From: Propioniferax innocua
Lineage (GTDB): Bacteria; Actinomycetota; Actinomycetes; Propionibacteriales; Propionibacteriaceae
Direction: 5' to 3'
Assembly (NCBI RefSeq): GCF_006716235.1
Contig: NZ_VFOR01000001.1
Location: 1,054,001 to 1,118,000 of the forward strand
Length of the DNA stretch: 64,000 bases
Shown here: one piece after another, positions 14,952 through 18,914 of the stretch
Layout: each line of letters begins with the position of its first letter
Position numbering within the stretch: the first letter of the stretch is position 1
Notes under the pieces: model-generated
What the model saw: the letters and a program-made list of their open reading frames with translations, nothing else
Database searches by the model: none
Told to the model about the DNA's origin: nothing
Program-made: the position numbers and the translations under genes

Positions 14952-16367
14952 TCACCGCTCGGCGAGCAGGGCTGCGAGGGTGTCCGGGAACCGCTCCGCG
15001 AGCCGTTCGGGTGGCCGCGGCCCGGGGTGGTCCGCGGCGGTGAGGGCCTGAAGGGAGGCGCCGAGCACCGCGGCGAGGGTGGCGTCGACGCCGGTGGCGA
15101 GGAGGGCCGCGCAGGCTCCGGCGAGGGTGTCGCCCGATCCGGCACGCGCCGTCCAGGCCGGCCCGGGAACGGGCATCTGCACGGTGGTCTCCCCCGGCGT
15201 CGCCACGTATTGCAGACCGCCCTTGAGCAGGATGGTCGCCCCGAAACGGTCCGCTGCCCGCCGCGCCGCATCCATGGGTTCGGCCTCCACCTCGGAGCGT
15301 TCGACGCCGAGCATGCGCGCCAGTTCTCCCGCGTGTGGTGTCAGCAGCGAATCGGACAGGTCCAGGCCGTCGAGCAGATCCGGTCGCAGGGCGTCGGCAT
15401 CGAGGACGCAGGGAGCGGTGTCGGTCCATTCGGTCAGGCGTGCGCGCGCTGCCCGAGTGTCACGGTCGCCCCAGCCGCTTCCTGCGAGGAAGGCCTGGCA
15501 TCGACCCTCGGCGAGCACGACGCTCGGGAACTCCGCGAGCAGGGACACATCGGCGTCGCCGAGGTGGCGGATCATGCCGGCGCCGGTGTTGAGGGCTCCG
15601 GCCAGCGCAAGTCGGGCGGCACCGGGGTAGGCCGCCGAACCGGCGTCGATGCCCACCACACCGCGGGTGTACTTGTGGTCATGACGAGTCGGCACCGGCC
15701 AGGCGGCTGCCACGTCGGCGGCCTCCCACTGGCGCAACGCGGGCGGGCCGGTGGCGTCGAGGTCGAGGCCGATCTCCACCAGTTCAGTGGGCCCGCAACG
15801 GTCGGGCTGGGTGAGGTGGGCGATCTTGTGTCCGCCGAAGGTGACTGTGAGGTCGGCGCGCAGTCCGCTGGGGGCGCACGAGTCGGACGCGAGCCCCGAC
15901 GGCACATCGACCGCGACGACGGGGGTGTCGCCGATGGCTTCGGCGATGGCACGATCCGGTTCGCCGGCCCGGCCCCCGATACCGAAGAGGCCGTCGATCA
16001 CGAGATCACAGGGCTGGTGAAGTCCTTCGACATCGGTCACGGTTCCACCGGCACGCAGGAGCGCCGCGAGCCCGGCCTCGTGGCCACGGCCGGTGAGCAG
16101 GTGGGCACGCACGCGCACGTTGCAGCGTCGCAGGAAGGCCCCGGCCCACAGGGCGTCTCCACCGTTGTTGCCGGGACCGACCAACAGATGCACCGTGCGA
16201 CCGGATGCCGGACGCAGTTCACGCAGCACCGCCGCCGCCAAACCTGCTGCAGCACGACGCATGAGGGTGCCGTCGTCTCCTGGCGCGACACCGGTCTGCG
16301 GGTCTGGCTCCCCCATGATCGTGGCTTCGGCGCGGCGGATCTGATCAACGGTCCACGCGGTCTTCAT
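14952..16367 (-). CDS. nnr: bifunctional NAD(P)H-hydrate epimerase/dehydratase Nnr
   Basis: 471 residues. The N-terminal YjeF epimerase domain (about 1-205) has VGPGNNGGDALWAG and DGLFGIGGRAGEPD. The C-terminal ribokinase-like dehydratase (about 220-471) has VLDADALRPD, TPHAGELARMLG and the AGSGDTLAGACAALLATG ADP-binding loop. The enzyme repairs damaged, hydrated NAD(P)H. The segment 15921-16292 of this gene is duplicated as a fragment about 1 kb upstream. Possible start at 16367, MKTAWTVDQIRRAE. Confidence 0.95.
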   Translation of the reverse strand: MKTAWTVDQIRRAEATIMGEPDPQTGVAPGDDGTLMRRAAAGLAAAVLRELRPASGRTVHLLVGPGNNGGDALWAGAFLRRCNVRVRAHLLTGRGHEAGLAALLRAGGTVTDVEGLHQPCDLVIDGLFGIGGRAGEPDRAIAEAIGDTPVVAVDVPSGLASDSCAPSGLRADLTVTFGGHKIAHLTQPDRCGPTELVEIGLDLDATGPPALRQWEAADVAAAWPVPTRHDHKYTRGVVGIDAGSAAYPGAARLALAGALNTGAGMIRHLGDADVSLLAEFPSVVLAEGRCQAFLAGSGWGDRDTRAARARLTEWTDTAPCVLDADALRPDLLDGLDLSDSLLTPHAGELARMLGVERSEVEAEPMDAARRAADRFGATILLKGGLQYVATPGETTVQMPVPGPAWTARAGSGDTLAGACAALLATGVDATLAAVLGASLQALTAADHPGPRPPERLAERFPDTLAALLAER

Positions 16368-16499
16368 GGGGCCATGGTTGCACGGTGGGTCGGCAGCTCT
16401 GCGCTAGCTACACCATGGGCGACACCGCGACGCCGGAAGATTCCGGCCAACTCTCCAGCGGGCGTTTTCGTGATCATGCCCCAGTTAGCATGCCCCCCC

Positions 16500-16931
16500 A
16501 TGACTTCAGCATCGAGCGCCGTCCCCCCACCTGAGGAAATCATCGAACGCATCCTCGCCGTCGCCGAAACCGACGAACCCGGCACCCCCGAAGAAATCGA
16601 CCACACCTTCCACACCGTCGGCATGCCCGAAGCCCCTACACTCCGCAAACTCCTCCTCCGAAGCCGATCCCTCCTATTCCCCAAAACAGAAGTCACCGTA
16701 TGGGGAACAGCCCACACCTACTCCGCCGGAACCTCTGACGAAAACGACCTCATCAGATTCTGCCGCCTCTACCCCGAATGCATCCCCATCGTCGGCATCG
16801 AATACGCATGGCACCGAGAAAAGCAATCCTGGTGCTACTGGAACCACACCTTCGACGAATTCTTCGAGTTCTACCCCGACGACGCTGCGATGCTCCACGC
16901 AGCCTTCGAACATCTCACCCCCGGACACTGA
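16500..16931 (+). CDS. small acidic protein of unknown function, copy 1 (possible immunity protein)
   Basis: 143 residues starting MTSASSAVPPPEEIIERIL. It has no signal peptide or membrane segment. A conserved core reads LYPECIPIVGIEYAWHREKQ and NHTFDEFFEFYPDD near the C-terminus. I do not recognise the family. The composition is acidic and rich in Trp, Tyr and Phe at the end, and codons use many GAA and AAA, unlike the GC-biased neighbours. It is about 80 per cent identical to copy 2; the changes cluster at residues 58-85. The location beside a SUKH-like and a YbaB-like gene suggests an immunity protein. That is inference only. Confidence 0.7.
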   Translation: MTSASSAVPPPEEIIERILAVAETDEPGTPEEIDHTFHTVGMPEAPTLRKLLLRSRSLLFPKTEVTVWGTAHTYSAGTSDENDLIRFCRLYPECIPIVGIEYAWHREKQSWCYWNHTFDEFFEFYPDDAAMLHAAFEHLTPGH

Positions 16932-16933
16932 TC

Positions 16934-16948
16934 ATGGCGAGAAAGACC
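16934..16948 (+). pseudogene. start of the small basic ORF, cut off by the duplication junction
   Basis: Three bases after the stop of copy 1, ATGGCGAGAAAG (Met-Ala-Arg-Lys) matches the start of the basic ORF that follows copy 2 (GTG GCT CGC AAA). The match ends after about four codons, where the nnr fragment begins. This places the right-hand duplication breakpoint inside that ORF. Confidence 0.7.
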
Positions 16949-17320
16949 GGGGGTGTCGCCGATGGCTTCGGCGATGGCACGATCCGGTTCGCCGGCCCGG
17001 CCCCCGATACCGAAGAGGCCGTCGATCACGAGATCACAGGGCTGGTGAAGTCCTTCGACATCGGTCACGGTTCCACCGGCACGCAGGAGCGCCGCGAGCC
17101 CGGCCTCGTGGCCACGGCCGGTGAGCAGGTGGGCACGCACGCGCACGTTGCAGCGTCGCAGGAAGGCCCCGGCCCACAGGGCGTCTCCACCGTTGTTGCC
17201 GGGACCGACCAACAGATGCACCGTGCGACCGGATGCCGGACGCAGTTCACGCAGCACCGCCGCCGCCAAACCTGCTGCAGCACGACGCATGAGGGTGCCG
17301 TCGTCTCCCGGCGCGACACC
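16949..17320 (-). pseudogene. nnr fragment (N-terminal epimerase part), pseudogene
   Basis: 372 bases nearly identical to 15921-16292 of nnr, equivalent to about residues 26-149 of Nnr in the minus frame. The first ~25 codons and all of the dehydratase domain are missing. The frame is still open but ends in unrelated sequence on both sides, so no functional enzyme is expected. It separates the two copies of the small acidic gene. The stretch 16932-17404 holds nothing else that I can identify except the upstream region of copy 2. Confidence 0.93.
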
Positions 17321-17404
17321 GCGACGCAAACACCGCGACGCCGGAAGACTCCGGCCAACTCTCCAGCGAGCTTTTCATGATCATGCCCCAGTTAGCATGC
17401 CCCC

Positions 17405-17824
17405 ATGACTTCAGCATCGAGCACCGTCCCCCCACCTGAGGAAATCATCGAACGCATCCTCGCCGTCGCCGAAACCGAAGAGCCCGGAACTCCCGAAGCG
17501 ATCGACCACACCTTCCACACCGTCGGCATGCCCGAAGCCCCCACACTCCGCAAACTCCTCCTCCGAAGCCGATCCCTGCGCTTCTCCAAAAACGAAATGA
17601 AAGTCTGGGGCCTCGGCGACACTGACAATGACGGCTACGACCTCATCACCTTCTGCGACCTCTACCCCGAATGCATCCCCATCGTGGACATCCAATATGC
17701 ATGGCACCGCGAGAAACAGGTGTGGTGCCACTGGAACCACACCTTCGACGAGTTCTTCGAATTCTACCCCGACGACGCCACCATGCTCCATGCCGCCTTC
17801 ACCCACCTCGCCGCAGGATACTGA
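17405..17824 (+). CDS. small acidic protein of unknown function, copy 2 (possible immunity protein)
   Basis: 139 residues, MTSASSTVPPPEEIIERIL. It is collinear with copy 1, with identical N-terminal (residues 8-57 nearly unchanged) and C-terminal blocks. The middle is replaced: SRSLRFSKNEMKVWGLGDTDNDG against the TVWGTAHTYSAGTS region of copy 1, with a four-residue length difference. The promoter region directly upstream (catgccccagttagcatgcccc) is almost the same in both copies. The family is not recognised. The following basic ORF starts two bases after the stop. Confidence 0.7.
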   Translation: MTSASSTVPPPEEIIERILAVAETEEPGTPEAIDHTFHTVGMPEAPTLRKLLLRSRSLRFSKNEMKVWGLGDTDNDGYDLITFCDLYPECIPIVDIQYAWHREKQVWCHWNHTFDEFFEFYPDDATMLHAAFTHLAAGY

Positions 17825-17826
17825 CC

Positions 17827-18066
17827 GTGGCTCGCAAAAGAGGACTGGACATCTTCAGGAAGATGGTCGCCCCCTACCTGAAGACATGGATGCGCTCCGG
17901 CGCACCTGCTCGCGGCGTCCTCAAGAAAAAAGTTTACGAGATGCCCGGCGTGCACTTCCGTCCTCTGAAATACACGAAACGCACCAAAGCAGATCGAAAA
18001 AGCCGCGACGTCAGTTCGACAACGGTGGCCGCCACCCGGCGGCGGTGCCCGCATCATCACCCCTGA
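17827..18066 (+). CDS. small basic protein of unknown function
   Basis: 79 residues from GTG 17827 (MARKRGLDIFRKM). It is strongly basic, with KKKVYEMPGVHF and KYTKRTKADRKSRD, and ends in RRRCPHHHP. It follows copy 2 of the acidic gene with a two-base gap, so the acidic and basic proteins may be a translational pair. An acidic-basic pair next to immunity-type genes could be an antitoxin/toxin or immunity/toxin-fragment pair. I cannot identify a toxin fold and the ORF may be a remnant. Confidence 0.45.
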   Translation: MARKRGLDIFRKMVAPYLKTWMRSGAPARGVLKKKVYEMPGVHFRPLKYTKRTKADRKSRDVSSTTVAATRRRCPHHHP

Positions 18067-18130
18067 CCGAGCCCACGACGATTCAGACCGACACCCCGAA
18101 TCCGCCAACCCCCACGACCAAGGAGGACCC

Positions 18131-18592
18131 ATGCGAGACATCGACGCCCTGCTCACCGAGATCGACGAGGACGAGGGCTTGGAGCCTGCCGCGACCGCCG
18201 CGGACATCGACGTCCTCACACCACGTTTCCGGGAAGTGTTCGGCATCGACCTGCCCGAGACGATCCGGAACATCTGGCTTCGCAGCGACGGCGTCTGGGT
18301 GAACGGCGTCCACCTGTACGGCACCCGCGATTTCGAAGAGGGCGAGCAGGGACGCAGCGTCGACACCCTCGGCATCCTCGAATCGAACGAGCGCCTGCTC
18401 GAAGGGGGTCACACGATCGACTCCCCGCTGCGGTTCATCGGTGACGTGGACGACCAGCTGCTGGCCTATGACACCAGCGACAACCGTTGGAAGTTGGTGG
18501 ACCGCACCGACTGGGAACCCGACGACGAGGAGGAAGACTCCCACGCCACGTGCGAGGAATTGATCCGCGACGTGCTGGAATCGCGGGTCTGA
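18131..18592 (+). CDS. SMI1/KNR4 (SUKH)-like family protein
   Basis: 153 residues with a clear aaggagg ribosome-binding site (18120-18126) ahead of ATG 18131. The sequence is acidic. ADIDVLTPRFREVFGIDLPETIRN followed by IWLRSDGVWVNGVHLYG is the usual SUKH opening (helix, then the short loop before the first strands), and LGDVDDQLLAYD-like strands follow. SUKH proteins are often immunity proteins against nuclease toxins; some are intracellular scaffolds. The gene is followed 13 bases later by the YbaB-like gene, so they are probably one operon. No toxin gene is in the window. Confidence 0.72.
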   Translation: MRDIDALLTEIDEDEGLEPAATAADIDVLTPRFREVFGIDLPETIRNIWLRSDGVWVNGVHLYGTRDFEEGEQGRSVDTLGILESNERLLEGGHTIDSPLRFIGDVDDQLLAYDTSDNRWKLVDRTDWEPDDEEEDSHATCEELIRDVLESRV

Positions 18593-18605
18593 TCCGCCAC
18601 CCGCC

Positions 18606-18908
18606 ATGAGTTTCGACCACATCTTCGACGAGCTGAGCGCCACGGCCAAAAGCGTCGAGGCCCAGCCGGTGCGGGTGCCCACGGTGGAAGCCGAAGGTGC
18701 CTGCTCCGACGACCTGATCGTGCTCACCATGAGAGGCGGGGAGTTCACCGATGCTCGCGTGGACCCTCGCGCGATGCGGAAGTCCAACGCCGATCTCGGC
18801 GATCTGATCATCGAGGCGGCCATGGGTATGACCGACGCCGATGGTGCCGCACAACACGTCATCCACGCCAACGAGGGATCCGCCGTCGAAGCGTTGCTCG
18901 GGGCCTGA
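18606..18908 (+). CDS. YbaB/EbfC-like small protein
   Basis: 100 residues, MSFDHIFDELSATAKSVEAQ. The central VLTMRGGEFTDARVDPRAM followed by SNADLGDLIIEA matches the strand-turn-helix core of YbaB/EbfC nucleoid-associated proteins. In actinobacteria such genes often stand next to WXG100 or polymorphic-toxin loci. The order here, after two unknown genes and a SUKH-like gene, fits that setting. DNA binding is not shown. It ends six bases from the convergent acpS. Confidence 0.6.
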   Translation: MSFDHIFDELSATAKSVEAQPVRVPTVEAEGACSDDLIVLTMRGGEFTDARVDPRAMRKSNADLGDLIIEAAMGMTDADGAAQHVIHANEGSAVEALLGA

Positions 18909-18914
18909 CGCGCC

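What the first reader, a model, noticed from the sequence alone, without database searches (positions are those of the whole stretch)
15921..17824. Tandem duplication in which the passenger DNA is unchanged and the small gene has diverged
372 bases of nnr are copied almost base for base, yet the two copies of the small acidic gene downstream differ at about a fifth of residues, clustered at residues 58-85, while their promoters and outer thirds are nearly identical. Equal age cannot explain this. Either the acidic genes came from different alleles by recombination or selection diversifies the middle of the protein. The pattern is typical of immunity or antitoxin genes.
Basis: partly seen in the sequence, partly recalled or inferred. 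Interest (0 to 1): 0.65.

Follow-up and report, generated by a model that had tools for sequence, protein, structure and literature searches.

The report
Two alleles stacked beside broken toxin
An actinobacterium carries two different versions of a small acidic gene, probably protective, side by side next to the wreck of a secreted DNA-cutting toxin, and the repeated scrap of a housekeeping gene between them looks like the scar of the recombination event that brought the second version in; it is a well-preserved example of a known way in which bacteria collect immunity genes.

Summary
The duplication is real: 374 bp of nnr (15920-16293) recur at 16948-17321 with one silent difference. The two acidic genes (16500-16931, 17405-17824) are 81% identical. 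'Outer thirds nearly identical' is only half right. Leader and codons 1-57 are about 95% identical, but from codon 58 to the end silent and replacement sites both diverge (silent 24/49, against 5/44 in codons 1-57 and 1/105 in nnr). The break at codon 58 is sharp (0 of 500 permutations). dN/dS is 0.29 overall and 0.48 in the middle, so diversifying selection is not shown; joining of two pre-existing alleles fits better.

They lie in a 2.5 kb insertion between acpS and nnr, which adjoin in 26 of 29 relatives' loci. It also holds the N-terminus of an HNH toxin that has lost its nuclease part, a SUKH/YrhA immunity-like gene and a YbaB-like gene. Relatives such as Granulicoccus keep intact toxin-SUKH-WXG modules. 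Both acidic genes end 2 bp before a toxin start; copy 1's toxin is cut after five codons by the nnr repeat.

Best reading: immunity-allele capture by homology-anchored illegitimate recombination, as proposed for Vibrio T6SS arrays. The immunity role of the acidic gene is inferred; no relative of it was found.

The parts
14952..16367 (-). nnr (NAD(P)H-hydrate epimerase/dehydratase), intact; source of the repeated segment
   Evidence: Carb_kinase 9.9e-30 and YjeF_N 1.5e-27
15920..16293 (-). segment of nnr present twice (copy 1)
   Evidence: 373/374 identical to 16948-17321
16422..16499 (+). leader of acidic gene A, 96% identical to the leader of gene B (17330-17404)
   Evidence: alignment
16500..16931 (+). 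acidic gene A, 143 aa, putative immunity gene
   Evidence: intact ORF; 81% identical to gene B
16673..16673 (.). divergence break at codon 58: 4.4% mismatch before it, 23.7% after it
   Evidence: change-point LR 42, 0/500 permutations
16934..16948 (+). first five codons (MARKT) of a toxin-gene allele, cut off by the nnr repeat
   Evidence: same 2-bp spacing and same MARK start as at 17827
16948..17321 (-). nnr fragment (copy 2) without start or stop: footprint of the joining event
   Evidence: one difference from copy 1; about 129 bp around the nnr start missing
17405..17824 (+). acidic gene B, 139 aa, putative immunity gene
   Evidence: intact ORF
17827..18066 (+). remnant of a WXG-module HNH toxin: N-terminal part only (79 aa), nuclease part absent
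   Evidence: 41% over 51 aa, E=3e-9 with the 189-aa HNH toxin of L048 (HNH domain); only 304 bp to the next gene
18131..18592 (+). SUKH/YrhA-family gene, likely cognate immunity gene of the lost toxin
   Evidence: NF038335 E=9.4e-14, 51.5 bits against cut-off 55; SMI1_KNR4 0.013; 43% identical to the SUKH gene next to the L048 toxin
18606..18908 (+). YbaB-like gene, 100 aa, shorter than its relatives (131-143 aa)
   Evidence: 42% identical to the YbaB-like gene of the WXG cluster L066, E=8e-11; the gene in this place in L049 matches YbaB_DNA_bd
16368..18914 (.). insertion between nnr and acpS
   Evidence: acpS lies directly beside nnr in 26 of 29 relatives' loci

Best explanation
The window holds a decayed toxin-immunity module of the WXG (type VII-like) kind, inserted between acpS and nnr, whose 5' part is present in two different alleles. 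The acidic genes A and B are alleles of one polymorphic gene that sits 2 bp upstream of the toxin gene and most likely protects against the toxin; they diverged before they were brought together. Proposed history: a strain with acidic allele B plus toxin took up DNA from a strain with allele A. The incoming DNA paired through nnr, which is nearly the same in both strains; its other end, five codons into its own toxin gene, was joined without homology to the recipient's nnr. The product is nnr - allele A - toxin stub - nnr fragment - allele B - toxin - SUKH - YbaB, which is the order seen. At some point the start of the second nnr piece and the nuclease part of the toxin were lost, leaving immunity-type genes without a working toxin. 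Shown here: the geometry, the three tiers of divergence, the toxin remnant and the module in relatives. Inferred: the recombination route, its direction, and the protective function.
For: Three tiers of divergence with sharp edges: nnr 1/105 silent differences, leader plus codons 1-57 about 4.5% of sites, codons 58-143 about 24%. Both acidic genes end 2 bp before a MARK start, and copy 1's toxin start is interrupted by the nnr repeat. The basic ORF is the N-terminus of an HNH toxin. Toxin then SUKH in G009, G002 and G211; SUKH with YbaB and WXG genes in G064, G068 and G070. acpS and nnr adjoin in 26 of 29 relatives' loci, so the whole block is an insertion. The acidic genes and toxin remnant have 59-60% GC against 72% for nnr and 65.6% for the window. 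[quoted passage not shown]
Against: No second strain or species with either allele was found, so the donor and the polymorphism are inferred. Immunity genes usually lie downstream of their toxin, while the acidic gene is upstream and the SUKH gene already takes the usual place. None of the related loci has an acidic gene of this family upstream of the toxin. The pattern could also come from an old duplication in which the nnr pieces were kept alike by gene conversion.
Confidence: 0.5

Rival explanations
1. Recent tandem duplication of nnr-acidic-toxin start within one genome, followed by replacement of the 3' part of one acidic gene (from codon 58) plus toxin by ordinary homologous recombination with another strain.
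For: A sharp break at codon 58 is what a crossover would leave, and the nnr copies are nearly identical.
Against: It leaves the middle tier unexplained: leader and codons 1-57 should then be as identical as nnr, but differ at 11 of 246 sites and 5 of 44 silent sites. It needs two events instead of one.
Confidence: 0.2
2. Old duplication with ongoing gene conversion: nnr fragment and 5' part of the acidic gene are kept alike by conversion while the 3' part drifted.
For: Divergence rises with distance from nnr.
Against: The second nnr piece is a dead fragment next to a 129-bp heterology, and nothing obvious selects for keeping it identical. The step at codon 58 is abrupt rather than graded.
Confidence: 0.15
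3. Diversifying selection on residues 58-85 after a recent duplication.
For: Replacement changes and the indel do cluster at 58-85.
Against: Silent sites are equally diverged from codon 58 to the end (dS about 0.8), dN/dS in the middle is 0.48, and nnr is unchanged. A recent duplication cannot give that many silent changes.
Confidence: 0.05
4. On function: the acidic gene is not an immunity gene but an export partner or chaperone of the WXG-type toxin, varying with the toxin it serves. (This is a rival to the function, not to the joining of alleles.)
For: It lies upstream of and 2 bp from the toxin start, while the SUKH gene already fills the usual immunity place.
Against: Both acidic genes stayed intact although the toxin is broken. 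No partner gene of this type precedes the toxin in the related loci. Weak profile similarity to SUKH.
Confidence: 0.25

Closest known systems
Orphan immunity-gene arrays of Vibrio cholerae T6SS clusters (PMC5361080)
   Same: Incoming module anchored by a conserved stretch, illegitimate joining on the other side, old immunity gene kept, effector lost
   Different: Here the anchor is a housekeeping gene (nnr) and leaves a visible repeat; the module is of WXG type in an actinobacterium; both genes are alleles of one family
Polyimmunity loci with tandem SUKH genes (PMC3482391)
   Same: Several immunity-type genes in a row on one strand without an intact toxin
   Different: Only two acidic genes and one SUKH gene, separated by toxin pieces and an nnr fragment; that paper says genes of polyimmunity loci are never interrupted by toxin genes or cassettes
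WXG-module HNH toxin locus of Granulicoccus phenolivorans (L048/L052)
   Same: Toxin N-terminus (41% over 51 aa) followed by a 43% identical SUKH gene
   Different: There the nuclease part and two WXG-type genes are present, and no acidic gene precedes the toxin
Transformation-made merodiploids of Streptococcus pneumoniae (PMC3784515)
   Same: Uptake of DNA produces a tandem duplication that can hold two versions of one region
   Different: Those are about 100-900 kb and arise between repeats; here the unit is 1,028 bp and one end has no long repeat

Membership tests
SUKH superfamily (acidic proteins) | Match to a SUKH/SMI1-KNR4 profile | tested here: not met
   No SUKH match in Pfam, NCBIfam, PHROGs or PADLOC
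SUKH superfamily (acidic proteins) | Profile-profile similarity beyond chance | tested here: inconclusive
   hhalign probability 21%, E 0.0011; 7% with a larger profile, above all 200 shuffles; gene B top of about 210 unrelated segments (23.9 against 20.1), gene A alone within the background
SUKH superfamily (acidic proteins) | SUKH fold | tested here: inconclusive
   AF2 pLDDT 39.5 alone, 49.3 with SUKH rows added; Foldseek found nothing significant; models too poor to judge
SUKH superfamily (18131-18592) | Match to a SUKH/YrhA profile and place after the toxin | tested here: met
   NF038335 E=9.4e-14, slightly under the curated cut-off; same place in G009, G002, G211
WXG-module HNH polymorphic toxin (17827-18066) | Shared N-terminal region | tested here: met
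   41% over 51 aa, E=3e-9
WXG-module HNH polymorphic toxin (17827-18066) | Intact C-terminal HNH nuclease | tested here: not met
   ORF ends at 79 aa; only 304 bp available; no match to the L048 toxin in this genome at E<=1e-5
WXG-module HNH polymorphic toxin (17827-18066) | WXG genes next to it | tested here: not met
   None between the YbaB-like gene and acpS; WXG genes lie elsewhere in the genome
Immunity array made by homology-facilitated illegitimate recombination | Homologous anchor on one side, joint without homology on the other | tested here: met
   nnr anchor; the sequence left of the joint at 16948 (toxin codons) is unrelated to that left of 15920 (nnr). A plain tandem-duplication joint would look the same
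Immunity array made by homology-facilitated illegitimate recombination | The same alleles occur with their toxins in other strains | tested here: inconclusive
   No homologue found in the sampled genomes; no other species of the genus is held
Immunity protein (acidic genes) | Neutralises the cognate toxin | not testable with these tools
   needs an experiment

The most novel reading that the evidence does not exclude
The acidic genes belong to an unrecognised immunity family of WXG-type nuclease toxins whose specificity sits in residues 58 onward, and the housekeeping gene next door (nnr) acts as a ready anchor by which strains stack alleles of it, so that the acpS-nnr gap is a hot spot for immunity capture in this genus.
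Probability: 0.2. Interest if true: 0.55.

Novelty: new member of a known kind. Interest (0 to 1): 0.36.

Why it matters
If right, the locus preserves the joint, the anchor repeat and both alleles of one immunity-capture event, which can be read like a scar. It would extend to actinobacterial WXG systems a route argued for Vibrio T6SS arrays, and offers an orphan protein family to test as a second immunity factor beside SUKH. Dual immunity to one nuclease has recently been shown in Pseudomonas (PMC13392607).

Tried and rejected
Homologues of the acidic protein: none in 58 relatives, and only chance-level hits (E 0.016-0.1, short) in 199 family genomes; the best of these (L003) lies among unrelated genes. 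None in 393 order and 395 class genomes (overlapping samples), plasmids, phages, viral contigs or the peptide-pattern scan of 85,000 species.
Pfam, NCBIfam, PHROGs, PADLOC and PDB sequence searches gave only chance matches.
Structure: both AF2 models are below pLDDT 50 and the Foldseek list is noise. The second model used an alignment with SUKH rows mixed in, so even success would have been biased.
Acidic genes as antitoxins of a type II TA pair: set aside because the basic neighbour is the N-terminus of a larger HNH toxin.
Other copies in this genome: none of the acidic gene, the toxin-remnant DNA or the SUKH gene.
Promoter and terminator scan: nothing. Literature search for YbaB with WXG100 in actinobacteria: no paper.

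Full report
WHAT IS THERE. The repeat unit begins inside nnr at 15920 and recurs at 16948. 374 bp match with one silent difference at 16281. In copy 2 about 129 bp that hold the nnr start and its upstream region are missing, between short GCGACACC repeats, so the second nnr piece has neither start nor stop. After it comes in each copy a leader and an acidic ORF: A, 16500-16931, 143 aa; B, 17405-17824, 139 aa; 81% identical. Each acidic ORF is followed after 2 bp by a start codon and the residues MARK. In copy 1 this frame runs into the nnr repeat after five codons; in copy 2 it continues for 79 codons.

DIVERGENCE. Silent differences are 1 of 105 in the nnr segment, 5 of 44 in codons 1-57 and 24 of 49 in codons 58-143. 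The leader differs at 3 of 75 sites. A change-point search puts one break at 16673, codon 58: 4.4% mismatch before, 23.7% after, likelihood ratio 42, none of 500 permutations as good. dN/dS is 0.29 over the gene, 0.48 in codons 58-85 and 0.15 in codons 86-143 (from the values). Selection limited to the middle does not explain strongly diverged silent sites to the end of the gene. Two older alleles brought together do.

NEIGHBOURHOOD. In 26 of 29 loci from relatives acpS lies directly beside nnr; here 2.5 kb separate them. The insertion has, in order along the + strand, acidic A, the nnr fragment, acidic B, the toxin remnant, a SUKH/YrhA gene and a YbaB-like gene. The SUKH gene matches NF038335 at 9.4e-14, just below the curated cut-off. 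Its closest relative in the family, 43-45% identical, is in genome G009. G009 contig 3 has the length of NZ_KE383974.1, Granulicoccus phenolivorans, which a separate scan returned for the same SUKH search. From that I take the window's family to be Propionibacteriaceae (own knowledge of Granulicoccus); the species itself was not identified. In G009 the SUKH gene follows a 189-aa gene with an HNH domain (PF01844, 3.8e-5) and is followed by two WXG-type genes, one matching WXG100_2 at 3.6e-12. The window's 79-aa ORF matches the N-terminus of that protein (41% over 51 aa, E=3e-9); the stretch up to the SUKH gene is too short to hold the nuclease. G002 and G211 also have HNH toxin then SUKH-like gene; G064, G068 and G070 have another gene in the toxin place, then SUKH, YbaB, WXG-type and WXG100_2-type genes. 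The host genome has WXG clusters elsewhere, one with a related YbaB-like gene between rpmA and obgE, but no match to the HNH toxin at E<=1e-5.

HOW IT PROBABLY WORKS. The geometry fits one event: incoming DNA with allele A paired through nnr and its other end, five codons into its toxin gene, was joined without long homology to the recipient's nnr. That gives nnr - A - stub - nnr fragment - B - toxin in one step, makes the nnr copies as alike as nnr is between two strains, and makes A and B as unlike as two alleles of a polymorphic gene. The same route was proposed for Vibrio T6SS immunity arrays (PMC5361080). A plain tandem duplication with later replacement of the 3' part needs two events and leaves the 4-5% tier unexplained. 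Gene conversion of an old duplication remains possible. Without other strains these cannot be told apart for certain.

IS IT AN IMMUNITY GENE? Position, low G+C, survival of both acidic genes beside a dead toxin, and the SUKH neighbour argue for it. Against it stand the upstream place and the absence of such a gene in the related loci. Profile comparison hints at a remote SUKH link: the score beats all 200 column shuffles and gene B ranks first among about 210 unrelated segments, but the probability is only 7-21%, gene A alone is within the background, and structure prediction failed. I treat SUKH membership as not established. The export-partner reading stays open.

NOVELTY. The process and the module are known kinds. 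New here are the setting, the preserved anchor repeat and an orphan protein family. The finding is real and well preserved, and of moderate interest.

Noticed in passing
L066 8166-9519 (G000:C2, about 252-253.5 kb): WXG-type, WXG100_2 and YbaB-like genes stand between rpmA and obgE, again inside a housekeeping gene pair; no toxin gene beside them
   Followed up: partly
L065 8044-10086 (G000:C4, about 52-54 kb): A second trio: WXG-like gene, a 423-aa Gly/Met/Pro-rich gene with a WXG100_2 stretch, and a third small gene
   Followed up: no
L067 8183-13095 (G000:C1, about 1.276-1.281 Mb): Two small WXG100 genes beside a gene that reads like a type VII secretion component (my reading, not tested)
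   Followed up: no
L049 4503-5354, L051 6920-7759: Genes in the toxin place carry tandem repeats of the type GTYGTHAGSSGPRASE; the one scanned (L049) matches no Pfam family. L050 5124-5807 is a shorter relative
   Followed up: no
L056 6131-7960 (G211): 609-aa HNH toxin with a long N-terminal region, followed by a SUKH-like gene
   Followed up: partly
window 17317-17345: A small ACACCGCGACGC direct duplication with an AA spacer at the deletion joint of copy 2
   Followed up: no
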